DNA of 64,000 nucleotides, from the NCBI GenBank assembly GCA_946699065.1, contig CAMPDV010000040.1, forward strand, positions 558,001-622,000. Direction: 5' to 3'. The notes below the pieces were generated by a model. The model saw only the letters and a list, made by a program, of their open reading frames with translations, did no database searches and was not told the origin of the DNA. Source of the stretch: Loxodes magnus. Lineage: Eukaryota > Ciliophora > Karyorelictea > Loxodida > Loxodidae. A program made the translations under genes and the position numbers. Of this stretch, positions 1 to 64,000 are shown piece after piece (within the stretch, counting starts at the first letter, position 1; the number at the start of each line of letters is the position of its first letter).

Positions 1-49
1 TTCCTAATTTTAACATAATAAGCTTATTAGCATTTGTATCTTCTTTCAT
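1..49 (-). CDS. N-terminal fragment of an unknown protein (left edge)
   Basis: On the minus strand an ATG at 49 opens a frame starting MKEDTNANKLIMLKLG that runs off the left edge. Only 16 residues are visible, so no function can be given. The mix of acidic, basic and polar residues looks like coding sequence, and the 180 bp between it and the next plus-strand start would be a divergent promoter region. The evidence is short and this could be chance. Confidence 0.35.
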   Translation of the reverse strand, partial: MKEDTNANKLIMLKLG

Positions 50-229
50 AATGTTGATGTTATATTTCTCTATAGTATTTCTAAAGATTATATATCAAAA
101 GATATAAATCTTTAGTTTTCTATAAAGTATAATTAATTTAATAATAGCTAATAGCTTGCTTTATTGTAATCCATTTAAAAATTGAGGAACTTATAAGGTT
201 AATAAGATTAAGGAAGATATGATTAAAAA

Positions 230-1623
230 ATGCTTAATAATAAATTAAGCAGACTCAGTACATTAAAATATTTAGCTTCAAATATTTCGTAAGTGAAGGA
301 TGAGAAGAATGGATATGGATTAGTCTAATTTTGATGCCTTAATCATCCTGAGAAAGAAAACTATAATATGATTATTGAGTTGTACTATAAGTGCTTTTTA
401 TTGAAGAATAGTTATATAAATATAAGAGAGAAATGATTATTAATGAGTATATTAATTATTTAATTAAAGTGATATAAAAATGTATGTTTATAAGTTTCCA
501 GGCAGAAGATTCTTTTTTAAGTTCAACAAAAAGCCCGTTTTGCTGGAAAAATAAACTCTTGAAAAAATGACTATTTGCTATTAATAATAAAAGGGGCATT
601 TGTGAAATTTGATTGAGCCTTTTAAGAAGCTACAATAAATAAGTATAGATTACGGAATTGCTAAGAAGAAATAACCTGGAGCCCTAAGTGGAAAATTTTT
701 AGGAATCTACCTTGATCATGAAGATAAGATATTACCAACTTAATATTGTACTTCAGCATTAGGACTAATTTTAGATTGGTAAGAAAAATAAGACGCGAAG
801 TTACTTGAAGATAAGAAAGAAAATACTGAATCAACAGAAATGACAATAAAAGAAAATGAAGATTCTATTTTACAAGTTTCTTCAGAAACTTTTTTACTAA
901 TAAACCAGCTAAAAGAGTAGTACAAGAAATAGTACTATTTCAAAACTTTAGAAAAGCGCTCAGATGTTTTAATTTGCACAGCTTCTTTCAAGTAAAATGG
1001 AAATTTAAGTTTTTGGATATCAATGTATAAAATTTACAATATGATGAATGAATACATAACCTAAAATAAATTATATGACTAAGTTCCTTTAATTTTAGAT
1101 CTTTATGACTTTGATAATTCCTAAGTTTCTGTTTGCGTTCCTTTTAAAAATCATGAGCAATATTTTATTTGATCTAAGTAACTAAGAACATTTTAATTTA
1201 AATAATTATCCTTTTTAATATAATCCTTAATTTCATTCTCTAAGTTTGCTTCTCTTTTCAAACAAGAAATCAATCAAAGGCTCTCTGCGATGGCTAAACT
1301 ATCCTTGTAATTGAAATTGTTTAAATGGTTTTTGTATTTTAATTATAATAAGAATCTGTAATTATCTTATATTTCCTGTCCTTTAAAAAATGTAAATATT
1401 CAAAATCCACATTTTTAGTAACAACTTAAAAGCTCCTTTTAAATAATATAATCAAAAGTTTAGTTTATTATCATCTTCAGATACTTATATTGTAAGTAAT
1501 TTTTATATATTATGGAATAAGAAGCAGAATAATTATTATGTTTACATTGATAATCCTTTGCTAGAATAATATATTAATTATAGAAAACTTATCGCTATCT
1601 TTACTAATTTTAATTATAATTGA
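230..1623 (+). CDS. Unknown protein, about 453 aa, two probable tiny introns
   Basis: I do not recognise this protein. Under the ciliate code the frame starts at ATG 230 (MLNNKLSRLSTLKYL), shifts at a probable 16 nt intron (391-406, GTGCTT..GAAG) into a frame with YVYKFPGRRFFFKFNK and DYGIAKKKQPGALSGKFLG, and shifts again at a possible 16 nt intron (1083-1098, GTTCC..TTTTAG). It ends at TGA 1621. With both introns removed the length is 454 codons. A competing frame stays protein-like past the second intron to about 1160, so the 3' exon boundary is uncertain. A stretch rich in Glu and Lys lies near residues 190-215. It faces the next gene tail to tail, 90 bp apart. Confidence 0.5.
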
Positions 1624-1713
1624 TTACTTTTGTACTAAATTACAAGTAAGTTGGGTAACTTAAACTAAAAATAAGATAAATCATTTAGGTTAATTTATAA
1701 TATTATGTTTAAA

Positions 1714-3261: not shown

Positions 3262-3595
3262 TCCAATAAGATAACAGATAAATATATAAATATAATTAAA
3301 GTGTCAATGAAAGCTAATTACAATGTAATCTTTTTCTGAATAAATCCTTTCTTTTTAGAATTTATACAAGGAGCATTAATTAAGATTGCTTAGCTTCCTA
3401 TATTAATTTATTTTACTTATAAGCTTGTTACTTTAGTTTAGATCCTTGCAGAACTAATTAACCTTCATAAAATATCACTTTGCTTCAGTAGATAAGAAAT
3501 AAATTAGATGATGTATTAAGAAAGTCTAATTGATTAGTTAAAATTTTAATTAAAGAGGAGTTAAATATCTAAATTGTTAATTTCAGTGAGCATTT
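3262..3595. other. Intergenic, 334 bp
   Basis: AT-rich spacer upstream of the MGCCPCC gene and downstream of ALY/REF. I see no gene or repeat in it. Confidence 0.6.
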
Positions 3596-4174
3596 TCATA
3601 TCTAAATAGTAGCTTACTTTAATCCTGGTCTCCAATATATTACTTGAATTACTTATCCATCTACTTTGGAGTTGTTATATTCAGAAATTGCTTTCTTTGC
3701 ATCTTCTGGATTTTGAAATTCCACTTCGGCTGTTCCTAAAGATCTTCCTAGTTAATCCCAATGAATGCCACATCTTTTTAAAGGTCCTATCTATGAGAAC
3801 ATATCATTAAGATCTTTATTTATTACATTAAAATGGAGACCGCTTATCCAAATACGACACTTTTAAAGAGCAGATTATGTAGTATACGAACGAACTACGG
3901 GCTTTGCATTAACAGACTTTTACGTTGGTTAAGCTTTAAAAGCATTTTGTTTAGTTCTGGTTGTAAATGATTTTCTTAAAAAATTAGGACGAATCTAATT
4001 AATCTATCTTTGCTAAAAAACAGGCTTTCTTTACCTTTATATTTGTCTTTACTTGTAATTAATAACCCTCTTCTATTTATTTTTCTATTGCACGTTCTTC
4101 TTTTCATTTTTTATAATATCATCTAAGGACATCTCAAGCAATTTTGAGGCATTATGTGCTTTAGCATCCTCCAT
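3596..4174 (-). CDS. ALY/REF mRNA export adaptor, 192 aa
   Basis: An ALY/REF (Yra1-type) RNA-binding adaptor of the TREX complex, which links spliced mRNA to the nuclear export receptor. The N-terminus has the conserved short helix EMSLDDIIKNEKK (residues 14-26) that binds the UAP56/Sub2 helicase. A basic Arg/Lys/Gln-rich linker follows (residues 30-100). A single RRM then spans about residues 105-185: RIWISGLHF fits RNP2, LGTAEVEFQ fits RNP1, and DAKKAISEYN is the second helix. Length and order match the family. It ends ATTIQI-TGA at 3596. The start is only 22 bp from the stop of the upstream gene. One open frame, no intron. Confidence 0.9.
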
Positions 4175-4196
4175 TTATTTATTAATAATTATATTG

Positions 4197-5319: not shown

Positions 5320-6264
<945 letters not shown>

Positions 6265-6860
6265 TTTAGTATAATTTCTTCCTTAGTCTATTTAAAGGAT
6301 ACCTTAGATATTTATTTGAATCAATCTAGAAATTAAACTAATAAATTTCATATCATATAATTCATTTTATTGCAAGCAATCAATCATATTATTAAACTTC
6401 TTACTACAATACCTTATATGCATTTAATTAAGGCTTGCTTATGATTAAAACTATCATATCTTTATCTATCTTCAAGTTAGTTACATGAATCATTACTTGC
6501 GTTTATCTTTTATCCCTTTTTAATTAATAACCTTTCCTTAAGTTTTAATAAGCATTATTCCCTACAATTAATACAAATCCAATTTATAAAATAAGAACAG
6601 CTGCTGATTATAAATGTTTGATTTGTTAGTTAGCTTATTTTAGATTAATACTTCATTTAGTTTAATAAAAGATTACTAATTTTAAACTTAATAGTTGTAC
6701 ATAATATTAGTAGGCTATTTATACATAAAGGCATAGTATAGGATATTTAAGTTGTTTAATGTATTCTTCTTATACTATTAGCAAGCTTAATATTTTTGTT
6801 AATAGACTACTCTTTTAGTTATTATATTATATCCTTTTGCTTTATACAAATAGAGTCTTA
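6265..6860. other. Divergent promoter region between CDK-like kinase and glutaredoxin
   Basis: 596 bp between two divergent start codons. It may hold a short N-terminal extension of the kinase (in-frame ATG 6351). No other feature seen. Confidence 0.5.
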
Positions 6861-10240: not shown

Positions 10241-12518
10241 AATTAACTTTTATTTAATTAAGCTTTGGAGTAAAAACTTTATTATCAATCTAAAATATCA
10301 AGCTTCTATCATATTTATCTATTAGCATTTAAGATAAAATAATACTTCTATCTAAGCTTTTGAAATTAGCTAAGTATAAGTCTTTTAATTTTAATCTATT
10401 TTAGGTCTTATTTAACTTCTAGTTTGATGATAAATAACCTTTTTTATTTAATTTATTTAGATAAAAATATCTGCTATATAACTAGATGTCTTCATAGGAT
10501 AAAAATAAAACTTTAATAGCATAGTAATCCTGAGATAAATTGGATTTAGATAAAATACTGATATTCTGGAGGCTTTGAGTAAATATGAAAATAAAACCTG
10601 ACAAATTTTAAAATCTTCTAGTAATGAGATATTTAAAAGACTTATTAGCTTGCAAAGTCGGTAGAAAAATTAATTTTGAAATAAAGGAAGTGAAATATAA
10701 AAGATTATATAATGGAAAGATAAAAAAGATTCTAGAATAAATAGATAACTAAACTCTTTTATATTAATTATGTAATTTAAATGATTAAAGGCATTAATAG
10801 TAACTATTAAAGATAAAATTAACCTTACTGGTTTTAAATTATTTTAGTACTCTATTTTATATACAATACCTACCTTTATATTTTAGGATCTAATTAATTA
10901 GCTTTTATATTTGAATTTCTTTTTTCATCTATTTTAGCTTATTTTATTATAGATTTATTACTATTTGAATGAATTAAATCTTAATAATATTGGCTACTTG
11001 TTAAATGCTATTTTACTAAAAATAATTTAAATTAAATTAATATCTTAAATAGTGTTAGGCACATCTAAAAGTAGTGTAATAATATATTTCTCTAAACTCT
11101 AGCAAGGCTTATTTTCTAAAATAACTAGCAAAAGTAGATGTAATTAGCTAATTAAGAGTTATTATTTTACTATATTAGTCTTTTTTATTCTAAATCCAAT
11201 TTTATACTAAGCTAAGTTAAACTAATGACTTGATATATTAAAGCTAACACTAGTATTATACTAACAATTTAATTTTAAAATAAAATATTATTAAATTAGC
11301 TTTTGATCTAATAAGTAGAATGATACCTAAATTATATTTATAAAAATGTAGCTTAAAGATACCTTTTGGAGATATATTATATAAGTTCTAAAATCCTTTC
11401 TAGTAATTAAAACTAAATGGCTTCAGAGAAATCCTTAAAGAAGCTATTATTGATTTCACAGTTTATATTTGTATAATGAAATAAGAGAATAGATTACTTA
11501 ATTTCTATCAATACAACAATTAAAACCCTATTACAGCTTAAAATAAAGCATCTCTTTTATCTATTTATTGTTCTTTATGCTTCATTACTGAATCTTTACT
11601 CCTCACTTTAAGGTTTATTCTTTGTATCTCTATATTAAAAAGATAATTAATTAGCTAAAGCTTTTTAAAATTAATAACTCAGTAATAAGAATAGCTAGAG
11701 ATAAAGCTTGTTAATAATATTTTAGAAATAGAGCTCCTATCTACTTATTAGCATCATAAAACCTCTTTTACATTTACTAAAAACATAATTATAGCTACAT
11801 ACTAATATATTTCACTATGATAACTAACTACATATCAGCACTATTTAGTTTTATTTCCTTAGCTATAAGTTTACAAACTATTAAGTAATATACTAATTAG
11901 AGAAAGAATAGTTATTATAATATATCTATAAATAATTCATTAAAATTAGGGAATATTATTGAATGCGACAGTATATACGATAGCATCTAGCTAGGTTTGA
12001 AATCTAGTACTAAACAGTGTCAACTAAATTATATTTATCTATAGAAACTGCTTAAAGTTAATAAGTTGCTTCATAAATTTTTAAACTTGTATGAGTATCA
12101 GTAAATAATACAGATTGAGATACATCTTTATTGTATTTTATAGTAGCGTAAGTTTTATAAATACTTATTATTAAATGATCTAAATCACCTTTTTCTCACT
12201 TTTTATATTTATTTTAGTCCTTAAATTATACATCATTTAAGCATAGTTGCTACATTCACAAAATAGATTATTTATAAAACTAAGTTTTTGCAAAGAGCTA
12301 AGATATGCTTATATAAAAGACAAGACAAAGAAAGACTTTTCAATAGACAAGAGAGATAAGGAAAAGGTTAAGAAGTATAGATAGAAAAAGATAAGGATGA
12401 AGAGATAAATAGTAAGAAGTAGAATTAAAGAGTAGAGTGTAGTTAAATTTTCGAAGGCTTATACGTTAAAGTATTTAAATGCTATTTACAAATAAAAGAA
12501 AATCATAATCGATTAATT
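10241..12518. other. Intergenic, 2.3 kb, with a purine-rich stretch near its end
   Basis: No gene recognised. About 12310-12430 is strikingly purine-rich on the plus strand and could be read as a Lys/Glu/Gln/Arg peptide, so a short exon or leader of the DYRK gene is possible. Confidence 0.5.
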
Positions 12519-16088
<3,570 letters not shown>

Positions 16089-17157: not shown

Positions 17158-18264
17158 ATGGGTGTCTATTATGGAGGAGAATATGTTGCAGCTTTTATTG
17201 GTGGTCTAATTATAGGTTTGTCAACTACTTTAAATTTATGGCTTTATGGAAAAATAACAGGTTTGAGTGGAATACTTGTTGGGATAATATATCCTTCGTC
17301 TGCAAAAGATATAGGATGAAGATATGTATTTCTAGTTGGGTTAATTTCTATTCCTTATATTATATACCTTTGTGATGGTAGGGAAGTCTACTTTTATGAG
17401 GATTATACTATGATCTTTTTTGATAAAGCTAACCATGTTGGGGAGAATGAGCATATCGTTGGATTTATAATTGGTGGAATCTTAGTTGGCTTTGGCACGA
17501 AAGTGGGAAATGGTTGTACAAGCGGACATGGAGTTTGTGGTTTGCCAAGATTTTCAAAAAGAAGCACAGTTGCAGTTTGCGTGTTTATGGCTTTCGGATT
17601 TGCAACAGCAACTATAAGATGGCACGCTAAAATTTTATAAAATGGAGATTATTGAGGTGAAGATGGATGGAAAATAGGAAGCTTAGTAATTTGATGTGTT
17701 TTGTTAGCTGGGGTTGTTTTAGACTTTATCATTGAAAGACAAAAAATAAAATTACTTGCATTCTAATTTTTATTCGGATGCATCTTTGGATTTGGATTAG
17801 TAATTTCAGGAATGTGTAGGCAGTGGAAAGTTCTTGGATTTTTAACTCTTCGTGATGGATGAGATCCAAGTCTTGGATTTGTAATGGGAGGAGCTGTATT
17901 AGTAAATGTGATTACTTTTCATTACATTATAAAAGTCAAGAAAGTTCCTGTCTGAACTGAAAGTTTTGGAATTCCTAAAAAGACAGAACTAGAAATTCCT
18001 ATGATTATTGGGAATGCTATTTTTGGAATTGGATGAGGATTTGCAGGATTCTGTCCTGGACCAGCTCTTATAGATTTTTTTAACACACCCCATTTAATAG
18101 TTTTCTTAGCTTGTATGATATTAGGATAATATTTTGGTGTTTTCACTTCAAAAAAATTAGAAGCTAGAGCATAAGTTAAAGTTACAGATAAAACATAAAA
18201 TATGAACGATCAAAACATAAGTAAATCAGAGGAAATAGCATTAACAGGACCATCTCAAAAGTGA
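17158..18264 (+). CDS. YeeE/YedE-family sulfur (thiosulfate) transporter, 368 aa
   Basis: A hydrophobic protein with about nine membrane helices matching the YeeE/YedE (sulphur transport, TsuA) family, which takes up thiosulfate in bacteria. Two related halves are visible. The first has [20 protein letters not shown] followed by RFSKRST, the conserved cysteine motif thought to guide the substrate. The second has [16 protein letters not shown]. The N-terminal half also has [12 protein letters not shown]. Both halves end in short loops, and the tail is polar ([13 protein letters not shown]). Single exon, 369 codons including the TGA stop. Several in-frame TGA trp codons and TAA gln codons show it is fully adapted to this nucleus. 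The family is mainly prokaryotic; see findings. Confidence 0.9.
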
Positions 18265-27261: not shown

Positions 27262-28260
27262 ATGGAGAGCTAGAAAATTTCAGTGGCTCTTGTTGGTGTA
27301 GGAAGAGCTGGCCACTTCCACTTGACTTCTATTTAGATGCTTCCTAAAGTTAATCTTAAATATGTTGTGGATACCAATTAAGAAGCTGCACAACGCGTTG
27401 CTAAATAGTTTAACACTCAAGTTGGAACGTGGGAATAGGTTTTATAGGATCCAGAAGTTAAAGCAGTTATAATAGCGACTCCAGCAAGCCTCCATATAAA
27501 TTATATACTTGATGCTTTTAAAAATGATAAACATGTTTTTGCAGAAAAACCAGCAGGAGCCAGTTTAGAAGAAGTCAGAACAATTTACTAATAGTAGGAA
27601 TAATATGGAAAGGTATTCCATGTAGGATTCTAAAGGAGATGGGATCCCAGCTATAAGCAAGTTTTAGATCAAGTAAAGAATAGTGGAGAAAAAATTTAAG
27701 TGATGAAATTTATGTTTAGAGATTGCCCATTACCTCCCTTAGAATTTTTGAGATAATGTGATGGATTACAAGATGCTATGACTCATGATTTTGATTTATG
27801 TTTTTCATTAGTAGATGAAAAACCATCAGAAGTATTTGCTATGGGATCTAATTTCATTCCAGAAATCAAAGATTTTGGTAACTACGACACAAGGATTATT
27901 ACTGTAAAATTCCCATCAGGAATTATGGCAACCTTTGATGGATAGCTTGAAGCTAAATTTGGATATGATATTCGTATGGAAGTATTTACTGGAGAAAGGT
28001 CGTATTTTGTAGATGTAAGGCCAACAACAATGACTAGAACTATTGACGCTAATGGAATTCACGAAGTTCCAATAGATTATACTTTTGTAGGAAGATTTAA
28101 AGAAGCCTATTTTAAAGAACTAGAAGCATTCTTCGAAGCAGTATAAGGAAATGCAAAGGTTCCAAAAGTAAATCCCACAGCATCATAGCACGAAAATCTC
28201 TATATCTTATTTGAGTCAATTAATAAGTCATTAAAGGATAAAGCAATAGTATACCTTTGA
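27262..28260 (+). CDS. Gfo/Idh/MocA oxidoreductase, myo-inositol 2-dehydrogenase-like, 332 aa
   Basis: A complete NAD(P)-dependent sugar or inositol dehydrogenase. The N-terminal Rossmann fold has VALVGVGRAGHFH (residues 8-20, GxGxxG dinucleotide loop), then VIIATPASLH. The diagnostic EKPAG motif is near residue 100, where the lysine contributes to catalysis in this family. The C-terminal domain includes HVGFQRRWDP, and MTHDFDLCFSL where IolG-type enzymes have an Asp-x-x-x-His; the substrate is therefore probably inositol or a related polyol. Length is typical. Single exon; gln codons TAA and TAG are frequent; it ends KAIVYL-TGA. The start gives only six residues before the first strand, as usual for this family. 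Confidence 0.92.
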
Positions 28261-39400: not shown

Positions 39401-40031
39401 AAGTGTTTTTGAAACTGATGTTGAAAGTTAAATGGAGTATGACGATAGCACAGGATATCATATGATAATTGAAGGCTCTTTTACGAAAGGAAGTTAATTT
39501 CGAAGTACCGATGTTCAGTTTACGAATAATTTATACACAGATATTCAATTTAAATTAAGTGACTCCTCTTTAGTTACAAAGCAGCTAAAGAAATAAACAT
39601 TCATAGACTTACTAAGTTCTATGCTAGGATCCATTTTTGGTTTAATGGGGGCTGTGATGGGAATAATGACATTCTTAGAGAAAAGGAAAAATTCCTTACA
39701 AGAATGGATTAAAATATAAAACTTAAAAAAGTCAAAGCATTTTAGTTTCATAGCAAAGACACTTAAATGAAGGAAAGAATCTGAAGCTGAAGAAATAAAT
39801 GCAAATTACTATATCAATGCTAAATTAAAGTAAGAAGAAATTAGCTCTTAAGCTTCTACTGGTAAAAATGTAAAATCTAGATTACAAGTTAGCAACAAAG
39901 TATGAAAAACTCCTTAAGTAGATTTGCAAGATACTGAATAGACATTCTATCAAACAAACCATACAAACAATGGCTAAACGTTTGAAGAAAACGACTAAGA
40001 ATGTTCAAAAAGAGCTTAGATAGACTTTTGA
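36420..40031 (+). CDS. Kelch-repeat receptor-like membrane protein with Cys-rich module, 1203 aa
   Basis: An intronless 1204-codon frame from ATG 36420 to TGA 40029. A signal peptide (MYLFLYFLMHLCLAQWS) is followed by about ten kelch blades (residues 35-610) with the pattern LFGGYTNNG..NDLW, YVFGGLGFTGYLNDTWVL, YVFGGRNEKNEPMNELW, YIFGGETTIGYVNDLW. A Cys-rich ephrin-receptor/TNFR-like module (about 635-735) has CPPGTYDNSSHYCKKCSIG and CPTGYFCGVG. Membrane helices lie near 750-775, 810-830 and 1050-1075. The segment between the last two has its own cysteines and may be a second extracellular domain. A polar cytoplasmic tail ends KRAQIDF. Trp is mostly TGA. Probably a cell-surface receptor or adhesion protein. 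Confidence 0.88.
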
Positions 40032-40473
40032 CATATTATGTTATAAATCTAATTCTTTAAAATGAGTATTTTTTAAAGCTAAAGCTTAATTTTAAAAATA
40101 GCAATTTAAAGGAAGTAAGAAGCTTGATAAAAATAGAAAAATGTAGCTGCAAATTAATTCTTTAAAGCTATTAGAATCTAAGACGTTACAAATAATAAAT
40201 AAACAATAAAGATACTTTACATTTGCTAAGTAATTAGTATTTCCTTTAAATGGTTAAAAGTTTAGCTCAGGGTAAAATATTAAGAGACTTCCTTATAAAG
40301 TAACTGCTCAATAAATTATATAAAATAGTCAAGGATAAAATATATTTAATTCCTAGTATCTGGTAAATAAATGAGGAGCAAAGATAGATAGGGAGTGTTT
40401 GGTGATAAAATGAGAGTAATTGATTAAATAATAGATTTATTAATAAATTAAGCTTTAATTATCTATTATAATA
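40032..40473. other. Intergenic, 0.44 kb
   Basis: Between the tandem kelch and OSCA genes. Nothing recognised. Confidence 0.5.
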
Positions 40474-43275
40474 ATGCAGAAAATACTGTCTTTAAATAAA
40501 GCATCTAATGATAACTAGGTAAAAAAACCTAGCTTAGAAGACGATGCTAACTCTGAGTCAACAAACAGTTAAAAGACGAAACTTTAGAAGGAGAAAATGG
40601 AAGAATAATTCGATTTAGAGGAATATAGGAAAAAATTTAAACCTTATGATCAAGCTAATATAGAAAAAGCTATTCTACACTCTGAAGTTAAGAAGGTAAG
40701 GAAAAGAAAAGATATCGAAGATGTTGAGAATAAAAATAACATTTGCTAATGTTGTGGATAGCACAAGGAGGGTGAATAATATTCTTTATGCGGCAATTTG
40801 CATGAACTTTCTGATTTAGGTGTAGGATTCCCTCTATATTTTATACTACTCAAATATATTCTAATCGTATTTTTATTTTGCTCCTTTTTCGGAGTAACAA
40901 TGGCAATTTACTGTCATCAAAAAAATGAAGATGAAAGTACAAGCTGAATGATAAGTTATTCAGTAGGAAGTTATGGTGAGTTAGTCAAGGGAAAATTTGT
41001 AGGCGAAGGAATTCCAGCCTGGTTTGGAATCTTACATCTGATAATAATATTTTGCATTCTGATCTCAGTTATGGTTTATCAAATATATGTACTGAAATAA
41101 AAAATGAAAATGGATGAAACCAATATTTCACCTAGTGATTATACACTTTGATTTAAAGGCTTAGGTAGAGATATTGATAAAAATGAACTAAAAGAATGGA
41201 TAAAAAAGAACGGTAAAAGTAGTTCAGAAGAAGTTTAAGTTCTAAAAGTAACTCTACTCTATGATATTCAGGATAAAGTAATGTGAACTAGGAAATTAAA
41301 GAAGTTTTAGTAAAGAAAAGATTTTATCAAAATTTATTAAGAGTAAAATTCAGGAAAACTTCCAAAAATAAAGAAATTTTTTTTTTTTGAGGCAAAGAAT
41401 GATACCCCTGAAGAAATAGATGAAAAGCTTAAAATAATAGAAAATAATTTAAAGATATATGATGATAAAGATGATGATCCAAACGATAAGGATTTATAGA
41501 TCGGAGAGGCATTAGTCACTTTTCAATGATAATATGATGTAAGAGCTTTAGAATAGAAATTCACAAAGAAATATGTAATTTAACACTACTTGAAGAATTT
41601 ATTTTCTAAAACGCTTGGTAAATATATTAAAAAAGTGGAAGCAGTTTAATTTAAAGGGAATTATCCTTATGCCTTTATTCCTCCAGATCCTTCTGATATA
41701 TATTGGGAAAATCTTGGAGTTAAATGATAGCAAGTAATTAAATATCGTTTCTTTACTTGGACTATCACTACAATGATATTAGTTGGAGGATTTTTTTCTT
41801 TATTAGCCATTTCAGAATGACAGCATGCTATGACTGAGTCGAAAACTAAGTCATAAATAACATCTTTCATTCCTAGTATCTTCATTCTTATAATTAACGC
41901 TGTACTTAAAGCTACGGTAAAACATTTAGCAATGTATGAAAAGCATGAAACATGAACTGCTTATACAGATAGTATAGCACTTAAATTGACTATCTCATAA
42001 ACTATTGCTTCAGCTGCTTTAGTATTAGTTGTAAACCGAAATCCTAATAATTGGTTTAAAAGTGGTGATTTGATATTTGATGCAACTTGGATTATTATTA
42101 CAGATGCTATTATAACACCTATAATCAAATTTATTGACATTGCTAGCATTACTGACAGGATTTCTAAATTTATACTTAGATATAAAGTAAAATTAACCTA
42201 TGTAAGCTAAATAGAGGCAAATATAATATGGGAAAATCCTTAATTAGATATGGCAGAATCAAATGCGTTGCTCATGAAATCGATAGCTATAACTTTAATA
42301 TACGCACCTCTTATTCCATTATCTTTTGCTATCTCTTCAGCAGGTATTCTATTAAGATATTGGGCAGACAAGTATAATTTACTGAGAAGACAAAGCAGAC
42401 CATTAGCTCTATCTGAAGTATTAAATGATGAAATGATAGATAATATTCCTTACTTACTACTACTGTATAGTAGCTTGGGATGATGATTCTACAAAACTTT
42501 ACATAGTGATGGAACTGTTTACTTTCTAGCAGCTTTCATCATAAATTTAATTTACGTTGCTTTTCCAATTCATAATTTGTTCTCGTTTTGCTTCAAGGAT
42601 AAAGCATCGCTATATAAGTAAATGTATGGATGTGATTAGTTTAAGTATGAAAACTAAGCACTTGAATTTATTGATGTAAGTACTAAATTTAGGATTTTGA
42701 TCGGGCAAATCCAGTTTCCGCTAATGAAGGATGGGAATATTATTATGATTTAATGGGTAAGCTTAATTTGACCGTATACAGAGAAATAACAACCACATAA
42801 GATAAAGGAAATTTAAGAAGATAGAAATAAATTTACTTTGTCAAAGCTAGGATTTACAGGAAGACTTAATTTATACGCAGGTTCTTCAGTAACTCTGGCT
42901 AAAAAAAACAAAGCTATTTTTAAAACTTAAGGAATTATGGGTATAGCTTAAAATACTGGAGATAGCAAGCAAATGCTAGTGGGGAAACTATTTAGCGCTT
43001 AAAAGAAAGAATCAAACTATCTATTGAAGAGTCAAAATTAAAAAAATAAGCTAGCAGGCAATACTTAAGCTTTAATATAGCCTAATTATACTTAAGAAAA
43101 CGTGGATAAATAAGAATAAAAAACGCCACTTCTTTCTTAATTAATCCAAAATAAAGATAACTTCTTTTTGCCAAGAATTGCAAAAGAAAAGTAACAAGAA
43201 AACGAAAATGAGAGGGGAAAATCTATTAAGATTTAGAGCGCTGAGTGCTTCAGCTTGAATACTAAAGACGTTTGA
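40474..43275 (+). CDS. OSCA/TMEM63 (DUF221) family mechanosensitive-type channel, 919 aa
   Basis: Introns of 17 nt (42676-42692) and 25 nt (42757-42781) give 920 codons from ATG 40474 to TGA 43273. The first membrane helices are LGVGFPLYFILLKYILIVFL and GILHLIIIFCILISVMVYQI. A cytosolic domain follows with SDYTLWFKGLGRDIDKNEL, then EALVTFQWQYDVRALEQKF, and PPDPSDIYWENLGVKWQQ, which corresponds to the family's AP-x-P-x-D-I-x-W-x-N-L signature. Seven or so further helices follow, including LVGGFFSLLAI and the ASAALVLVV region, with LRYWADKYNLLRRQ between late helices. The C-tail is long, basic and disordered. Family members are calcium-permeable channels opened by membrane tension or osmotic change; here that role is inferred. 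Confidence 0.85.
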
Positions 43276-47418: not shown

Positions 47419-48972
47419 TTTAAATAATTTATTTGTAAAACCTTCTCACTCTTTCTCTTTAGTTCAACTAATCCTTAAGATTGGTACTTAATCAGCCTAA
47501 TGTCTTAAGGATAGAAAGCCTATAATTAGAGAATTGTGGAGGAAGTAAAATAGGGTAAGAAAGGGCATAATTATATAAAGATATAGTGTGGGATATAAGT
47601 TATGATAGGAAGATTAAGGATTGGAATATCTATAGCATTACTAGGCTAAAATAATAACATCTCTTATTTCCTTACTACAACTAGATTAATCTTACTAACT
47701 GTTTAAATAATTATTAGGGTATTCCATTTAGATTCTTACATTCATTAGCATTTTTATTTAAGAATGCAAAAAGATGATTAAAATAAGAAGAGGTTTCGGA
47801 GTGATTAATCATGGTTAGTAAATAAAATACAGAAGGAAAGTAAGTTTAGTATGGAGAGTAAATTGATATATTTGAAGTAAAGGCTTTCATAAACAAAGCT
47901 TTATTATATAATTTATACCTTTTTACTAGCAAAATTTACTTACTTTAGTTCTAGTTTCTTGGAAAATCTGGCTTTAAATCTCCAAATTAAAAATAAAGAA
48001 TGATTATTATAAAATAAGGAAAGGAAAAATGGAACATTTTACTTTCAATGCTTGTTTTATGTCTTGCTAATATGTAATAATAAGATTAAGATAATTATAA
48101 TGCATTTAAAGGAATTACAGAAGAAGCTTAGTTTATAGTAGAAATAACTATTCTTTTTATGATTTAACGGTATAAAACTTTGTAATTTTCTACAAGTAAT
48201 AGGAATTATAGAATGAGAGTGTAGCTAGTTGTTGTATATTAACCAAATTCTATCTAAATCATAGCTTAATATTTTTACACTTGAGACTCATTATTATGTA
48301 CGTTATGCATTATCAGCAACATAAATGGAAACTAATAAGATTCTTGAATATTAAACTAGTCTAAATTAATAAATTCTCGTTATTATCTTTTGATTGCTAA
48401 TCTACTAAGTGAATCATTACATACCCTTATCATTTTTATAATAGCTTCCTATAAAATAACGTTTAACTGATCAAATTCCAATGCATATTGAAGCAGTATG
48501 GTAAATTTTATGATTAAAAGGCATTAATTAGTTTAAAGATGCTAGTAAAGTGGAACATATAAATATCTAGCAAGCTATATTTATTTCCTTAGTGGCATTA
48601 TTATTACTTTTCTTTGATATTCAAGATTCCTTTTTATTACTCTCCTTCTTAATCTTATATCTCATTTCCCTTACAAATCAATTCTCAATAAATCAGGTTT
48701 AGTTTGAAATCTCAGTAGCTCTCAATTCTAAATGAAGCATAAAATTATCCAGTAAGCAAGTAGATCAGCCTAGCTAAATAAAAAGTATCTAGCGTTTAGA
48801 TTCTAAAAGGATGTAATGAAAAGTAGGTTTTAAAAGATTCACGTATTTAAACGTAAGTTTTAGAGAGTTTGTAAAATAATTGTACAAAACTATTGGCTAT
48901 AGAGAAATGGACTATTGAGTAAAACGTTTGTATATATGACTAATAAAAGGGAGATTATGCATTATAAATAAA
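47419..48972. other. Divergent intergenic region, 1.55 kb
   Basis: Between SF-assemblin and the bZIP gene. No convincing gene. Confidence 0.5.
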
Positions 48973-50100
48973 ATGGATTTAAGCGAAAAAGATTTCAAAG
49001 TTAAAAAATCCGAGGAAATCAATATCTTTTCATTAGAAAACTCAGGACAAGGACATCTTGATGAGAATTAGCTGCCAGACCTTTATTAACCTACACCTCA
49101 ACTAAACTTTGGAGATATAATGAAGGAATATATTATGATGGAAGAGAGCTTATGCTCTGAATCTAGCATGAAAGCTCTTAGTACCAGCAGCAAAGAAGGT
49201 ACTTCAGAAATAGTAACAAACCAATCTGACTTTAAGAGTCGAATCGCAAACTGAAATATGAATAACTTTTAAGATGAGTAGAATAGTTAGAAGCTATATG
49301 GTGATATAGATAACAACATTAACTTCGCTACATTAGAGAATCAAAACTAAAACAAAAGAAAAAAGAGAAAAATCAATGATAATTCTTATCAAGAAAGTCA
49401 TTAAGTGATAAAGATGAAAGAGGAACTCTTAAAAATCTATAACTCCTAGCTAACTGAAGAGTAGAAAAAAGAAGCATGCTCCAAAATTAAAAACAGAATC
49501 TCAGCTTAGTAAAGCAGAGATAGATAAAAAGCTTAATTTTAAGAAATTTAGCAGGAAAATCAAATGTTAAAGTAAGAAAATCAGCTGCTTAAGTAGGAGA
49601 TTATCCTATTAAAGAAAGAGAATTAGTTCTTAAAGAAAAAACAAAACTAGGATGCTGTTTTGAAGCAAAATATGATGCAAATTAGAACGTTAGCTTAAGC
49701 AGCTCTATTAATGGTTGTTACCATAATTTGTTGCTTTTACTTTAATCCTTATGATGAAAAACTAGGAAGCGCAACAAATAAACTTCATCGAGAACTTTAA
49801 ACAATCAGTATCTTAAAGTAAAATTAATAGCAAGCAGAATATTTACAACCTGGGAAATTTCAAAACCTTTCAAGTGAATTGCAAAAGATAATGGGACTAG
49901 AACTAGAGTTAAGGTAAAACCAATACGCTAACTATTACTGCGAATTAACTGATTTTAACGATAAGCCTAATATAGAAAATGTTCATTATCCTACTATATT
50001 GATTCTTTAAAACTCAACCTATGACTCTCAAAATGAAAATAAATGGCTTAACAAATGGTTCTTCGACAAAACTGAACACTAAATTAAATATCAACTATGA
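48973..50100 (+). CDS. Membrane-tethered bZIP transcription factor (ATF6/CREB3-like layout), 375 aa
   Basis: One 376-codon frame, ATG 48973 to TGA 50098. Residues 1-160 are acidic and Ser/Asn-rich, like an activation domain, with a basic patch KRKKRKIN near 143. The basic region SKIKNRISAQQSRDRQKA (about 166-183) fits the bZIP signature N-x7-R (Asn, then Ala-Gln-Gln-Ser-Arg). A leucine/asparagine zipper follows (NQMLKQENQLLKQEIILLKK). A single hydrophobic helix AALLMVVTIICCFYF lies at about 242-257, then a 115-residue tail with a few cysteines. bZIP plus one membrane helix just after the zipper is the arrangement of ATF6, CREB3 and plant bZIP17/28, which are cut loose in stress; the regulation here is inference. 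Confidence 0.85.
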
Positions 50101-55481: not shown

Positions 55482-57311
55482 TCATTTTATCCTTGCATCT
55501 CTTAAGCCAACGTTGTAATAACTCGCTTTATCCATCTAGGTTCCTTTTGAAATTCCAGTCATTGTACCTTGATCTCTTGGAGGCCATACTTGAGTCTCGT
55601 TTTCTCTTCTGAAGTTTGATAAATCTGTTTAACTTCCTGTAGTTGCTTTTGATCTAATATCAGCCATTTGCAAAGCTTATCTCCTCAGTTCCCATTCATT
55701 TCAATGATAATTAGGATCAATATTAGATTCCATAAAATGTGTAGGACACTAAATCTCACAATCTAGCATCAAAGGAGCAACTCCAACTTTACTTAAGATT
55801 TAGACTAAACTGCAAGATTGGAACTCATCTTGAAGCCTAAGCAAATGTATTAGTTCTGGATGAATTCTACAAACATCATAAAGCTCTTTAAGTTAATCTT
55901 CCGTATTTATAGAAAAATCAATAGCTGCTTAAGCGCTGGAAAATACTAGTAGCTTTTCCTACATTTTAAACACACCTAAGCTTGGTTTACCTGGAAGAAG
56001 TAATCCGTTTCTTTTGATTAAAGTCCAAGGACAAAAGCCTTAAAAGTCTAAAGGTAAGGATAGAAAATCTGGAGTATTTTCTTAGGTAAATCTGATTGCT
56101 CCATCCAATTCATAATTTTCATCTCATTATTCCACGGGTGGCTAAAAGGCTCTTGCAGCTCTAATTAAAGCATTTGGAAGAGTAAATTAGAATTAGCTCT
56201 TACTATCCATTAAGAGATTAAACAGTTAGTTCCTGATTCTAGCTTGACATCTTTCTTCCAAAAGTTAATTATATAGCTAAGCTAAAGCATCAAATTTGGG
56301 ATAAACTTGGTCCTTTGGTATACTTGTTTTGTTACCAATTAAATCCTTTACGTTGTTCATTTCTCTTAAAAACCTTCCAGCTAATGCTTCAACACTTCTT
56401 TCAGCTGCTGCAACTTCTTCTTATAACCCTAGCAAATAAGTTAATTGTTGTCTTATAAATCCTAGTTCCTTCTACCAAACCTTTAGATTCTATTCAGTTA
56501 CTTAAACATCTTAAATGTTAGAGGAGAATAAAATAGAATAACCTTCACAAATTTCAGCTAAAGACGTTAATTACTGAATTATATTGCTTAGCAAGGATCT
56601 TGCAGGATGCTCTACTAATTCCATAAAGCTGAATAAGCCAACTCCTCCCTTTCCTATTTCCTTGTTAAAGAGCCTAATTCCTAAAACTATATTGGCTAAC
56701 TCGCAAAGCTGAGATATTTTCTCTGCATCTGTTAAAGAAATTAAAGGTCTCAACCCTGCTCTTGGCAAAACGGATTCAAGAGCTGCAGCAACTTCTCTTT
56801 CCATTACTGACTAGTTCTAATTAACTCTAATTGATGGCAAGGATTGAACTAAAGTACCAGCAGGTGTGAGTAAGATATCAGCCAAATCTGTGCTAGCTAA
56901 TGTATTTTTGTAGGATAAAAATGCGAAAATCTTCTTATATAGTAAGGTTAATCCTTCGAAATCATTACCTCCTTTAGTTTCACAATGAACTATATCATCT
57001 AAAAGTTTATTTGTCTCTTAGCCTTACTGCTCATAAGCAGCTGCTCTCAGTAATTCTTGCTATAGATAGTCTCCATCATATGCAACTTATAACTTTAAGA
57101 TTGGACTTGGATTTTATAGAGCTTTCACTGTTTTCTACGTTAGTTGCTCAGCTTATTTATCATTTTCAAGTCCTGTTTCACTAAAGAATTATCCAGTATC
57201 GCGATTAAGTTGAGTTCTTGCAACCAGAGCTGCCAAAGGTTCAGTTACAGGGCATCCTTTTTCTCTGCATTTAAAAACAACAAGTTTGACAACTTCGTCT
57301 ATGTCTACCAT
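55482..57311 (-). CDS. CFAP206: Cilia- and flagella-associated protein 206
   Basis: A 609-residue protein matching CFAP206/FAP206, an axonemal protein that docks radial spoke 2 and the dynein c region on the 96 nm doublet repeat. It starts MVDIDEVVKLVVFKCREKGC. The N-terminal two thirds are helical (LTDAEKISQLCELANIVLGIRLFNKEIGKGG is a long conserved stretch). The C-terminal third has FCPWTLIKRNGLLLPGKPSL, VFSSAQAAIDF, then HWNEWELRRQALQMADIRSK and a Thr/Gln-rich tail (TGSQTDLSNFRRE, then ETQVWPPRDQGT). Length and motif order fit the family. Intronless, 610 codons to TGA 55482; two TGA trp codons are internal. It fits with SF-assemblin nearby as ciliary machinery. Confidence 0.9.
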
Positions 57312-59516: not shown

Positions 59517-60181
59517 TTCTGCTATTTTATACTTAATTAATTTCAACTCCCATCATAATATGAGCTCTATTTAAATTATATCTCCTTATTAACTCTTTCA
59601 AAACTTAAATTTCTATCATAAGCATTATGAATAACTTCGATATTACAAGTTTTAGTCAAAGGAGTATTTTGTATCTCAAATCGATCTAAGAATTACTTAA
59701 AAAGCTATTAAAATACCTGATTGTAAAGGAATGAATGATATCTTATACTATAAGTAATTACTTCGGTTCTAAAATGAATAAATCATCTATATAGCAAACC
59801 AAATCTTATAGCATAATGGAATAATTCCAAATAGATTAATCATCTCTTGTCTTTACTGTTAGCTGATTAAAATGATTGATATATTTGTAGAATTAAGGAT
59901 AATTATAAGCTAGTAAGTCTATAAAGTTATTATTCTCTTCATTGCAGTAATCTGTTATTTATTGTCAAATCTAATTAAATTGTCTTAGAAGTTAAATATT
60001 ATAAGAGTTAGAAATCTATTAGAAAAGCTGATTTGTAGGTGGTGTTGCATAAAGAAATGAAGTAAAGTAGATTTATCCTAAAGATATTAGATGTATAAGT
60101 GATTAACTAATTCCTGTAATTAAGCCATTTTAAAATGAGAGTATTTACTAGGGAATAAAAGAAAATATCGATTCTAAAAAC
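59517..60181. other. Convergent intergenic region, 0.66 kb
   Basis: Between TAF10 and the PX gene. Nothing recognised. Confidence 0.5.
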
Positions 60182-61147
60182 TCATAAAATAGTAGAGTCG
60201 TTATTTGAATTAGATATTGAAGCCTCACTTTCTACCATTGAATTCTGAATTCTGTCTTTAGAGTAAAATAATTTAATGAACTCTTGATTTTAATATGTAG
60301 ACTCATGCTTCACTATCTACTGAAAAAAGTTCTCTAACTTCTATCTTCTCTTTCTTATTAATTACTCTCCATCATTTTTAAGCGATGGAACCATTCAAGA
60401 TAACCAGCCGAAGTAATTTTTATTAGGAAACTTAGATTAATCAATTTCCTTATTTTGCTTGCTAAGGCTTTCATAAAGAGTTTTAAGCTCAGAATATCTT
60501 GTAGTAGTAAATCATTCTTAGCCGTCATTTCTTCTTATTTTTAATTAGAAAGCAGTAAACTATTTCTTGCTGTTTTCTTTTTGGGCATTTCTCCAATGAA
60601 TAATATGAATGGTAACCTATCTAAGTCATATTTCACTCATATATTAGATTTCACATTTCAGCAAAGGCCTTTAATCATTTTTAGTTTTGCATGTGATTTA
60701 ATCGCTAAAATTCTCCATCTATTCTAGTACAAACCAAGCTTCTGTCGTTTGGTTTTAAAATTTAGAAAGTTCTGATAATTGAAATTTGATAATATGCTCA
60801 ATTTTCTTATTTCTTTCATATCAATCATTTTTAGTCACTTTGTTCAGCTTTTCAGAAGACCCTTGAAAAGGACTTTCAATACTGGAAAGTTAGGATTTTT
60901 CCTCTTCACTTTCTAAATCTTCAGGAACTGAGTAGCATATAATACTTGCAGTCTGTTCAGTATCTTCAATCTTAAACTCATAAGAATCACCTAGCAGCTA
61001 CCTACTTCCGGCCTTTAGTTCTGACTATAAAATTTGATGGTCAATAGATAGGTAAAATTAATACAGCTTATTAGAAACTCCAAGATTAACAGCAGCGATA
61101 AGCTTGATAAAGACAGAAGGCTTTTTAAGTAAAATAAAAGCTTCCAT
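60182..61147 (-). CDS. PX-domain protein, 321 aa
   Basis: ATG 61147 to TGA 60182, 322 codons, no intron. Residues 1-95 form a beta-rich N-terminal region (AFILLKKPSVFIKLIAAVNL) that could be C2-like, then an acidic Ser-rich linker. A PX phosphoinositide-binding domain occupies about 185-290: KQFTAFQLKIRRNDGQEWFT, then TTRYSELKTLYESLSKQNKE, FPNKNYFGW, and RKRRQKLENFFQQIVKHEST. The R-Y-S-E-L pattern, the FPxKxxxG loop and R-R-x-x-L-E-x-F are the PX lipid-binding hallmarks. The C-tail is Ser/Asn-rich. It probably binds PI3P on endosomes. Head to head with a tail-anchored gene, 27 bp apart. Confidence 0.88.
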
Positions 61148-61174
61148 GAATGGGTAATAATAAATATAGACTAA
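61148..61174. promoter_or_regulatory. 27 bp divergent intergenic gap
   Basis: The start codons of the PX gene (minus) and the tail-anchored protein gene (plus) are separated by only 27 bp, including a TAAATATA run. Both promoters and both 5' leaders must fit here or overlap the neighbouring coding sequence, so the pair may be co-regulated. Confidence 0.5.
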
Positions 61175-61540
61175 ATGTCCTAAATCTTTTAATTAAATTA
61201 GGATACAATACAGCAAAATTAAGAAAGCTGATAAAGCGAACATGAAAGTTCTGAAACTCCCAAGCAAGCTGTATCTCCAAGTGAACTTCAAGATGCCTGC
61301 TAGTATATGCAAGATAAGACGGAAATAATATAGACTTTGGAGTAAAATATTAGTGTAGATAATACCTTGGATGATTAAGCCAAACAATTATAAGAAAAGC
61401 ATGCACCTTGAATCAGAAGACTAATGTCAGAAGAGAAAAGAGCGCAAACAAAATTTATCGTGTGTCTTATCGTGATTTTGTCTTCAATTGTTGTTATCCT
61501 AGTTCTTCTTTTAGTTTGGCTGAGGAAATATAAAAGTTAA
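61175..61540 (+). CDS. Tail-anchored membrane protein (SNARE-like layout), about 121 aa
   Basis: ATG 61175 opens MSQIFQLNQDTIQQNQESW. A polar, helical central part (SPSELQDACQYMQDKTEIIQ, then TLEQNISVDNTLDDQAKQLQ) leads to EEKRAQTKFIVCLIVILSSI and a strong C-terminal membrane helix ending LLLVWLRKYKS. One membrane helix at the very C-terminus after a coiled region is the layout of SNARE and related tail-anchored proteins; no central Gln/Arg layer can be identified, so SNARE is only a possibility. The end used is TAA 61538, just after RKYKS. No in-frame TGA follows; a 34 nt GT-AG segment from 61536 would instead give a longer luminal tail ending at a TGA near 61677. Confidence 0.6.
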
Positions 61541-62121
61541 TTTTTATAATTAGGTTTAATTAATCCTAGACTTTAATATCTCATTTTCCTTATCTCAACT
61601 CAAACCACCAAAAGTTAACTTTTTATTTTAATGTTCCTTCATATTCTTAGCTATAGAAAATAATAGGGCATATAACTGAATAGAAGTGCATAATAGTTTT
61701 AAAGGTATTCTAAAGGAGGAATTCCAATAAAATATAAGTATAAAAGAGAGTGTTAAGTTAATATTTATTAAAGTAATATGAAATTTTCATTCAAAGAACT
61801 ATTAATCCATAATTCAAACTACTTAACCCAGCTTTCTAAATATAACTATCAAATAATTCCCCTTAAGTCATAATTTGCTTATACCAAAATAAATAAGCCT
61901 AAAGAATAGAAAGGGACTAAGTAAGAGAGATTGGATAGTAGAAAGGTTCCACTAAACTTATTAATAGCTGTCTTCATTAGTATAACTATCAAGATAGAAA
62001 AAAGGAAAGTCTAGAGAGATGTTGGAGAAGAATAATTGTTAATTAAAGGACTATTTGAGGAAATAGATTAAGAAAATTTAAATAAATTTAAAGTTTTTGA
62101 ATGTTTTTATCTATAATTAAA
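61541..62121. other. Intergenic, 0.58 kb
   Basis: Upstream of the Cys-rich surface protein. Its first 140 bp may include a last exon of the tail-anchored protein. Confidence 0.45.
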
Positions 62122-64000
62122 ATGAGATTCTTAGCGTCTATTCTAATTTTCTGATCACTGGCATAACTTTCAAAATCATGTTGGGATGAAAATTTCAATA
62201 TGGTTTGCAACTTGGATGGCTAATGATGTGCTCTGCCTAACTCCTGTGAGAATTGTAATTATTCAAAAAATTGTGCAAAATGCTTGATAATTGATGTATA
62301 AGGGGTTTGCAAAGCATGCAGATAAGGTTGATATCTTAATAGACTTTCAAACGAATGTTAAAAGAATTGTAGCAAATAGTACTGATTTACATACTAGGAA
62401 TAAATAGAAATCACTTCGGACTTATTTTACACAGTAGAAACATGCTAGTATTGCTTTTCAAATCCTTATTTCATTATGCAAAATAAATGTGATAACTGTG
62501 TTAATATAAATGGAAGTATAATCTGCGTAAAAAATTAGACTCAATAGATTTTATATTAGCAAAGTGCTAGGAATGGAGAACTATAAGATTAGTTTTAAAT
62601 TAAAAAGGAGATTATTGATAAAAGCCACTTATAGACTGGGACTACAGGAACGAAAAAAAGAAAGACTTAATATGATTAATGTCCATATAACATTGTAGGT
62701 GGACATAATTATTTCTTAAATAAAACTCATTTATAGGATGAAGGCATATAAAAATGTGAGCTTGCTTACTATTATACTCCTAAAAGTATGTTTAAAAAAC
62801 CACCTTTACCTTGAGGATGTGGAGTCTATAAATACTCAAATTGCCATGATTTTACTAGAATTTGTGATTATACATGCATAGCTGGTTTTTGGTGATGCAC
62901 ACCTGATGTTTCAACTTGTTCTTCAAATGTTAAGGTTTGTAACCAAATTGCAGCTGATAAAAATAGTATGACATCTTAGTCTAAAACTTTTAATTTTTAT
63001 GATTATTTGACATATATGTAGCCAGGTGGAATTAGTGACGTAACAATTGATAATTCGCAAGCTAATGGATATTAAGTTTATTAAATGGATCCAAATAATC
63101 TTTGATTAGATTGTGAAGATTAATGATACAACCACATATATTCAACTGCTGAATTCGGAGGCTAAAATGGAATTTGCCTTCCCTGCTACAACATGGTCCC
63201 AAATTGTATTGATTGCACTAATCAAGATGGACTCTATTGCAGGAAATGTGATACTGGTTATTACCTTTATGCAGAAGATATAACAGTCACATCTTGTGTC
63301 TCTACCCAAAATTAATGTGGCTGATATTATTTCAATGCTTATGATAAAGTATGACTTTATAGTTATACTTATGAATATATATATTTCTGCAAAAAATGCA
63401 GAATTCCTAATTGCTTAGATTGTAAAAAATCTTCACCTGAAGCAGTTGAATTCGAGACGTGCAAAATATGCGTACCAGGATACTATTTAAAAATAGATAC
63501 AAACGAATGTGTTACCTATAGTTAGTGCTTAGTGCATTATTATACTAAAACCTTATATAATTAACAGCTTCCTGATGGCTCTTATTCCTCAGTTCCTGTA
63601 TGTTTGGAATGCTCTATGGGTAAAAGTACTTGCTATTATTGTGTCTTTGAATGAGATAAAGGATATGATGTTTGCTATAAATGTACTAATAAAAGGTGAC
63701 TTCTTCAATCTAACTTTGTGAATAAAAATTAATGATAATGTGTAGATTCTTGCTTAAGCATGGGCTGGTATTAATATCTAGAAACTGTTTATGACTCTAG
63801 AATTTCTCCTGATGGAAAATGGTATTCCAAAACTTGTAGAAGCTGCTCTTTATGAACATAAATTCCAGTAAGCTGTATTGATTGTATATATGGAACTACT
63901 TAGAATTACAGTGGATTTTAATGCACAAAATGTGATCCAAATTCTTTTTATAAATATCTAGATCGAGGTAAAAATGCTTGCCTTAATGATTGCTAATTTG
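62122..64000 (+). CDS. Secreted or surface Cys-rich repeat protein (furin/VSP-like), partial at right edge
   Basis: ATG 62122 opens a signal peptide (MRFLASILIFWSLAQLSKS) followed by at least 626 residues, continuing past the window. Cysteine-rich repeats of the furin/growth-factor-receptor type recur throughout: CENCNYSKNCAKC, GVCKACRQGWYLN, CIDCTNQDGLYCRKCDTGYY, CLDCKKSSP, CKICVPGYYLK, CTKCDPNSF. Aromatic residues follow most CxxC pairs (G-Y-Y, G-W-Y). Such proteins are abundant and expanded in ciliates as surface or leucine-rich transmembrane antigens. No internal stop other than sense TGA. A C-terminal membrane helix is expected but lies outside the window. Confidence 0.85.

What the first reader, a model, noticed from the sequence alone, without database searches (positions are those of the whole stretch)
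1..64000. All three stop codons are sense codons; TGA is both Trp and the terminator
Conserved families here read only if TAA and TAG are Gln and TGA is Trp: the kelch blades (NDTW, NELW with TGA), YeeE (GIGWGFAGF), the CDK (GTLWYRAPE). The same genes end at a TGA exactly where the family ends (22 genes). The meaning of TGA must therefore depend on context, as described for karyorelict ciliates. In the kelch gene the last sense TGA lies roughly 40 codons before the terminal one.
Basis: partly seen in the sequence, partly recalled or inferred. Interest (0 to 1): 0.75.

Follow-up and report, generated by a model that had tools for sequence, protein, structure and literature searches.

The report
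Ciliate code with ambiguous stop codons
This looks like a piece of the genome of the ciliate Loxodes, whose genetic code reads all three usual stop codons as amino acids and still ends most proteins at one of them, TGA; that code is already published, but some genes here seem to end at TAA as well, which can be tested.

Summary
The window belongs to a 705.7 Mb genome, the size of the published Loxodes magnus macronuclear assembly (706 Mbp), whose code is NCBI table 27. With all three codons masked, in-frame TGA aligns to conserved Trp in CDK, CFAP206 and kelch genes; TAA fits Gln clearly, TAG only weakly. TGA sits at homology-anchored protein ends: histone H4 9 of 9, dynein light chain 18 of 20, actin family 33 of 40. 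The claim of 22 window genes ending exactly at the family end is not reproduced: 11 of 20 scanned segments match a family, and three ends can be anchored. Decoding fits the known mechanism: tRNA-Trp(CCA) arrays with a 4-bp anticodon stem, no tRNA-Trp(UCA) found by pattern, two eRF1 copies. One refinement: TGA may not be the only terminator. Of 41 hand-classed prenylated GTPase ends 35 have TGA, 6 TAA, none TAG; two centractin-like genes also have TAA exactly at the expected end, and a DYRK-type kinase in the window has no TGA at its end. This is post hoc and needs RNA.

The parts
5320..6285 (-). CDK-type kinase (5' limit uncertain); sense TGA at 5740-5742 (GTL-W-YRAPE) and 5680-5682 (VDI-W-SSGCIF); terminal TGA 5320-5322
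   Evidence: Pkinase E 3.7e-69; masked alignment to CDK3/CDK2; positions; the terminal TGA is near the length expected from CDK2
12315..16034 (+). DYRK-type kinase gene (5' limit uncertain); sense TGA 15900-15902; no TGA in any + frame 16012-16342; TAA at 16032-16034 directly after HPWFT is the first candidate stop
   Evidence: paralogue L076 has its first in-frame TGA 13 codons after HPWIN and has TGA where this gene has TGG in DMW-SFACIL
17158..18264 (+). YeeE/YedE-type sulphur transporter with several in-frame TGA; candidate terminal TGA 18262-18264
   Evidence: DUF6691 and Sulf_transp; frame read; TGA position
27262..28260 (+). Gfo/Idh/MocA (inositol dehydrogenase-like) gene; terminal TGA 28258-28260
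   Evidence: TGA about 36 codons after the last residue aligned to 3ezy, which runs on for 46
36477..40031 (+). kelch-repeat protein (5' limit uncertain) with 19 in-frame TGA and 9 TGG in the segment; terminal TGA 40029-40031, 42 codons after the last sense TGA
40000..43275 (+). coding stretch with an anoctamin match; gene limits uncertain (its start overlaps the end of the kelch gene); candidate terminal TGA 43273-43275
   Evidence: Anoctamin E 2.4e-07; no match in solved structures with stops masked
55482..57311 (-). CFAP206; sense TGA 55701-55703 at conserved W; terminal TGA 55482-55484
   Evidence: FAP206 E 1.2e-54; masked alignment to 9e5c and 9y6s
60182..61024 (-). PX-domain gene with four in-frame TGA in the segment; candidate terminal TGA 60182-60184
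3596..4180 (-). RRM gene; candidate terminal TGA 3596-3598
48967..50100 (+). bZIP gene; candidate terminal TGA 50098-50100

Best explanation
This is nuclear DNA of a karyorelict ciliate, by inference Loxodes magnus, that uses the ambiguous code of NCBI table 27. UAA and UAG are read as Gln by tRNA-Gln of the UUA and CUA types (sequence patterns shown; charging inferred). Internal UGA is read as Trp by near-cognate tRNA-Trp(CCA) whose anticodon stem has 4 base pairs (tRNA shown; decoding inferred from work on other species). The same UGA ends translation when it is close to the 3' end of the mRNA, where eRF1 probably wins with help from poly(A)-bound protein (published model, not tested here).
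For: Genome size 705.7 Mb against 706 Mbp for the L. magnus MAC assembly. Masked alignments and residue scans: Trp at TGA, Gln at TAA. 91 of 136 scored kinase domains hold 157 in-frame TGA; 52 of 80 Ras domains hold 95. Anchored ends: H4 9 of 9 TGA, with a pattern that also allowed TAA, TAG and TGG; dynein light chain 18 of 20 with TGA within two codons of the profile end; actin family 33 of 40, including HRKCF-TGA. tRNA-Trp: 125 pattern matches, the 100 listed all with CCA; UCA-specific pattern 0 matches; the 9 copies read on C67 have A27.C43 and the 4 on C148 have U27.C43 in place of a pair. tRNA-Gln patterns with UUA and CUA present. eRF1 keeps NIKS.
Against: Of 13 aligned TGA, 8 face residues other than W, as can happen at variable positions. 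TAG = Gln is thin from alignments. Two single tRNA-Trp copies on C110 have a full 5-bp stem. The tRNA-Gln copies were found by pattern only and not folded or scored. The composition test of gene ends in the window is weak. Species identity rests on assembly size and code; no rRNA comparison was made. 'UGA is the only stop' is put in doubt by the TAA candidates below.
Confidence: 0.95

Rival explanations
1. Two of the three codons, UGA (mostly) and UAA (in a minority of genes), both end translation at mRNA 3' ends while also being sense inside genes; UAG is always sense. This extends the best explanation rather than replacing it.
For: 80 of 150 Ras-family matches had their tails read. I classed by hand 41 with a prenylation motif at a plausible end: 35 followed by TGA, 6 by TAA (L161, L165, L203, L206, L211, L212), 0 by TAG. 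L165 ends CNC-TAA where its relative L151 ends CNC-TGA; L206 and L211 end CCY/CCF-TAA where L159 ends CCKL-TGA. Two centractin-like genes end KTF-TAA and KTC-TAA, next TGA 24 codons on or not within 30. The six TAA-ended tails hold no TAA in their last 20 codons. Before TGA ends the last 12 codons hold 4 TAA and 20 TAG, against 172 and 79 in the domains of the same genes. The L. magnus paper reports UAA and UGA, not UAG, depleted before stops.
Against: No RNA. Post hoc and hand-classed; 39 of 80 tails dropped, among them six of one group ending in Y-TGA (L148, L150, L157, L187, L197, L207), which would raise the TGA side. L161 and L212 are the weaker TAA cases (unusual motif; TGA 16 codons on). 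The count alone is modest: P=0.0006 at a TAA rate of 2.6%, 0.016 at 5%, while TAA makes up 6.0% of codons in the window segments. Over the last 20 codons the TAA rate hardly falls (3.1% to 2.6%) and the shift comes from TAG rising (1.4% to 4.0%); the fall of TAA shows only in the last 12. H4 (9 of 9) and dynein light chain (18 of 20) end in TGA; of the other two light-chain matches L127 has TAA at +4 and TGA at +6, L137 no TGA within 30 codons. The two centractin-like genes are relatives and may count as one case. The paper calls UGA the only stop.
Confidence: 0.7
2. An ordinary ciliate code (table 6, TGA stop only) with in-frame TGA lying in very short introns.
For: Loxodes introns are very short, mean 19.3 bp and 93% up to 25 bp, so short inserts are possible in principle.
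Against: The TGA codons sit in gap-free aligned blocks at conserved Trp. A paralogue has TGA where the window gene has TGG at the invariant kinase Trp. 157 TGA lie in 136 kinase domains, most of which match the profile over nearly its whole length.
Confidence: 0.02
3. The genes with in-frame TGA are decayed copies and only TGA-free genes are live.
For: A decayed-looking actin copy with TAG and TGA at conserved positions exists (L095); the 43 best-scoring actin matches and both eRF1 copies have no sense TGA.
Against: Genes with TGA (kelch 19, CDK 3, CFAP206) keep frame and family fit, with TGA at Trp more than elsewhere. Sense TGA is in 91 of 136 kinase and 52 of 80 Ras domains.
Confidence: 0.02

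Closest known systems
Karyorelict (Parduczia) code, NCBI table 27; Loxodes magnus (PMC11441545)
   Same: TAA/TAG = Gln and TGA = Trp and stop; TAA scarce next to TAG in the last codons before the stop
   Different: The paper states UGA as the only stop; here a few genes have TAA at the homology-anchored end
Condylostoma magnum code (PMC4967479)
   Same: All three codons sense, termination by position near the 3' end; transcripts with only UAA possible as stop are reported there
   Different: No end with TAG here (0 of 41 prenylated ends); sense TGA is more common, 0.62% of codons in 18 composition-defined window segments against 0.042% reported for C. magnum
[quoted passage not shown]
   Same: UGA = Trp with a 4-bp stem tRNA-Trp(CCA); there reassigned codons are avoided in highly expressed genes, and here actin and eRF1 lack sense TGA
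   Different: There UAR is Glu and UAA the only stop; here UAR is Gln and UGA the main stop

Membership tests
Karyorelict ambiguous code (NCBI table 27) | UAA encodes Gln | tested here: met
   69 aligned TAA, best residue Q (83, next E 57)
Karyorelict ambiguous code (NCBI table 27) | UAG encodes Gln | tested here: inconclusive
   Alignments undecided, Q by a small margin with actin added; a tRNA-Gln-like pattern with anticodon CUA supports it (44 of 100 listed matches, counted by hand)
Karyorelict ambiguous code (NCBI table 27) | UGA encodes Trp inside genes | tested here: met
Karyorelict ambiguous code (NCBI table 27) | UGA ends genes | tested here: met
   H4 9 of 9, dynein light chain 18 of 20, actin family 33 of 40
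Karyorelict ambiguous code (NCBI table 27) | UGA is the only stop | tested here: inconclusive
   6 of 41 prenylated ends and two centractin-like genes show TAA at the end; no RNA to decide
Karyorelict ambiguous code (NCBI table 27) | Sense UGA depleted close to the stop | tested here: inconclusive
   Kelch gap 42 codons; Trp codons in the last 20 of fetched actin-family and dynein light chain ends are TGG except a TGA in L094 and in L095. The zero TGA in Ras tails is built into how the stop was chosen and is not evidence
[quoted passage not shown]
   two further copies (L064, L065) have 5 bp; absence of UCA rests on one pattern with no mismatch allowed
Condylostoma code (all three codons also stop) | UAG as stop | tested here: not met
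   0 of 41 prenylated ends; the H4 pattern allowed TAG and found none in 9
Ciliate code, NCBI table 6 | UGA never sense | tested here: not met

The most novel reading that the evidence does not exclude
Loxodes magnus has two context-dependent stops, not one: UGA in most genes and UAA in a minority (for example the two centractin-like genes and several Rab-type GTPases), whereas UAG, which has its own tRNA-Gln(CUA) type, never terminates. The DYRK-type kinase in the window may be such a UAA-ended gene. I recall, from no call, that Seah et al. 2022 said in their abstract that a small minority of transcripts may use UAA, so this would be gene-level support for a suspicion already in print.
Probability: 0.7. 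Interest if true: 0.5.

Novelty: already known. Interest (0 to 1): 0.35.

Why it matters
The code itself is published, so the finding is a correct rediscovery. What is useful beyond it: anchored gene ends (H4, actin, dynein light chain, prenylated GTPases) let one read the stop set straight from genome sequence, and they point to UAA as a second terminator that the gene predictor described for this genome, which models a stop at UGA, would miss. UAA and UAG, both Gln and each with its own tRNA type but seemingly different at gene ends, would make the competition between tRNA and eRF1 directly testable.

Tried and rejected
Composition-only gene-end test: weak, kept as such. TAG assignment by Pfam variants: undecided. 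Masked PDB search for YeeE and for the anoctamin-like stretch: no match. Prokaryote relatives of YeeE: none confirmed. Short intron in the DYRK tail: rejected as an explanation of the missing stop, because no + frame holds a TGA between 16012 and 16342, so no short splice could bring one near. An HSP90 test of TGA avoidance never got an answer and was dropped, as was the 18S search. The 404 tRNA-Trp copies counted come from overlapping loci and are not a gene count. Script one search printed its segments and then failed on saving; script read only one of 30 loci and was repeated. Rab tails: automatic labels were revised by hand (L139, L140, L160, L162, L205, L213 moved to TGA because TGA follows within a few codons or ends another motif; L154, L168, L173, L178, L179 dropped as not true ends).
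Full report
What it is. The window is G000:C40:558001-622000 of a 705,730,643-base genome in 7843 contigs. The Loxodes magnus macronuclear assembly is given as 706 Mbp in PMC11441545 (passages seen; section 9 read). Window G+C is 26%. I infer L. magnus from assembly size and code; no rRNA was compared. That paper states that karyorelicts use NCBI table 27, with UGA as the only stop and also Trp when far enough from the poly(A) tail.

Sense meaning of the three codons. I masked all three as X and aligned gene products to solved structures. CDK TGA codons 182 and 202 face W, CFAP206 codon 580 faces W, kelch codons 364 and 414 face W of LZTR1. In all, 13 TGA: W5, L2, and six other residues once; BLOSUM62 favours W (44) over Y (14) and F (6). 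For TGG, as control, 7 of 14 face W. TAA (69 cells) favours Q (83) over E (57). TAG (23 cells) is undecided: E 29, K 27, Q 26. One actin added moves TAG to Q 37, E 33. Pfam scans with TGA set to every residue give W as best in 7 of 8 kelch families on a fragment; PF24681 preferred Y there, but W on the whole segment (449.3 against Y 287.0 and F 278.2, the only three tried whole). For CDK, W scored best of 7 residues tried. For YeeE, W scored best of 10 residues in DUF6691; the weaker Sulf_transp match was best with M, over a stretch without TGA. A Pfam test of TAG with five residues did not decide. A paralogue of the DYRK gene has TGA at the invariant kinase Trp where the window gene has TGG.

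How common. In 18 coding segments (10,459 codons, found by codon composition, last 12 codons left out) TGA is 65, TGG 41, TAA 624, TAG 253. Genome-wide, 91 of the 136 kinase domains scored hold 157 TGA (counts copied by hand); 52 of 80 Ras domains hold 95 (80 of 150 matches used). The 43 best-scoring actin matches of 96 hold none, and the Trp codons seen in three of them are TGG; divergent actin relatives hold 1 to 4. Both eRF1 copies use TGG at all four Trp codons in the aligned part. This fits avoidance of sense UGA in strongly expressed genes, as reported for Blastocrithidia (abstract and passages of PMC12153298), but I have no expression data, and the HSP90 test did not complete.

Terminators. 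Ends anchored by family elsewhere in the genome are clear. Histone H4: 9 of 9 matches to a TLYGFGG pattern that allowed TAA, TAG, TGA or TGG end in TGA; the same logic was used for Condylostoma and Parduczia in PMC4967479 (passages seen). Dynein light chain: 20 of 21 matches fetched, TGA within two codons of the profile end in 18; L127 has TAA at +4 and TGA at +6, L137 no TGA within 30 codons. Actin family: 40 ends fetched out of 96 matches, TGA within two codons in 33, and as the very next codon in 22. The seven others: two with TAA (L090, L091), L094 (TGA just before the profile end), L095 (decayed-looking copy, TAA), L098 and L104 (TGA at +3 and +4) and L115 (profile ends early, TGA at +11).

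TAA as a second stop. Two actin relatives that I call centractin-like end KTF-TAA and KTC-TAA, with the next TGA 24 codons on or not within 30; they may be relatives of each other and so one case. I then read 250 bases after 80 of 150 Ras-family matches. By hand, 41 tails have a prenylation motif at a plausible end: 35 TGA, 6 TAA, 0 TAG. The other 39 were dropped; six of them form a group ending in Y-TGA. L165 (CNC-TAA) pairs with L151 (CNC-TGA); L206 and L211 pair with L159. In the 35 TGA-ended genes the last 20 codons hold 18 TAA and 28 TAG, against 172 and 79 in their domains (Fisher p=0.0002); per codon TAA goes from 3.1% to 2.6% and TAG from 1.4% to 4.0%. The last 12 codons hold 4 TAA and 20 TAG. 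The six TAA-ended tails hold no TAA and five TAG in the last 20 codons (about 3.7 TAA expected at the domain rate, P=0.024). The paper reports a like asymmetry: UGA and UAA depleted before stops, UAG not. Against it: the test is post hoc, the TAA count alone is only moderately unlikely (P=0.0006 to 0.016 depending on the rate assumed), TAA is common as a sense codon (6.0% in window segments), and there is no RNA. The zero TGA in those tails is by construction, since I took the first TGA as the stop.

The DYRK gene in the window. Its kinase domain ends at HPWFT; coding score and G+C fall by about 16100, there is no TGA in any + frame between 16012 and 16342, and the next in its own frame is at 16647. 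Its paralogue has the first in-frame TGA 13 codons after HPWIN. TAA at 16032-16034 is the first candidate stop. This gene may be UAA-ended, or may run on; I cannot tell.

Machinery. tRNA-Trp: 125 pattern matches, the 100 listed all with anticodon CCA, 48 of them on C67 and 50 on C148; a UCA-specific pattern found none. The 9 copies read on C67 have A27.C43 and the 4 on C148 have U27.C43, leaving a 4-bp anticodon stem; two single copies on C110 keep 5 bp. PMC13092985 (passages seen) says such a 4-bp tRNA-Trp(CCA) was identified in Loxodes, citing Swart et al. 2024, which I have not seen. tRNA-Gln-like patterns with UUA (the 100 listed of 364 matches) and with CUA (44 of 100 listed of 265, counted by hand) are many; they were not folded or scored. 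eRF1 has two copies on C196 (a third match on C2 was not identified), keeps NIKS, and has FLCENTF where human has YLCDNKF (the motif is named, its residue numbers are recalled).

Mechanism, shown and inferred. Shown: codon positions against families, anchored ends, tRNA and eRF1 sequences. Inferred: that the 4-bp tRNA reads UGA, that eRF1 wins near the poly(A) tail, that UAA keeps some stop function while UAG, with its CUA-type tRNA, does not. The poly(A)/PABP model is from PMC4967479.

Novelty. The code is already known. In the listings I saw nothing in titles or abstract openings reports UAA stops in karyorelicts, but I did not read those papers for it. Seah et al. 2022 is cited in PMC11441545, did not appear in those listings and was not read; I recall its abstract mentioning a minority of UAA stops.

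Noticed in passing
window 17158-18264 (+): A YeeE/YedE-type sulphur transporter (DUF6691 plus Sulf_transp), a family I know mainly from bacteria, sits between kinase genes in this ciliate; in-frame TGA shows it is read in the host code. A scan of prokaryote genomes with it confirmed no close relative.
   Followed up: partly
window 27262-28260 (+): A Gfo/Idh/MocA gene whose best matches in solved structures are inositol or related dehydrogenases, enzymes I know mainly from bacteria; possible transfer, not tested.
   Followed up: no
window 28948-31644 (-): Long open segment rich in Asn and Gln with repeats of the kind GFNNNQ, many Gln written TAA or TAG; looks like a prion-like low-complexity protein.
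   Followed up: no
G000 contigs C266, C437, C524, C707, C711 and others: 43 actin matches of nearly equal top score with TAG-rich Gln codons, plus decayed-looking copies (L095, L104); an unusually large actin family.
   Followed up: partly
G000:C67:482300-491400 and C148:155400-169000: Tandem arrays of tRNA-Trp(CCA), units of about 187 and 241 bases, both of the 4-bp stem kind with different mismatches (A.C and U.C).
   Followed up: partly
L034, by G000:C110:362491: Near the 5-bp tRNA-Trp copy on C110 lies a tRNA-like sequence with anticodon CAU and the same acceptor stem (matched by pattern only); possible anticodon shift between tRNA families.
   Followed up: no
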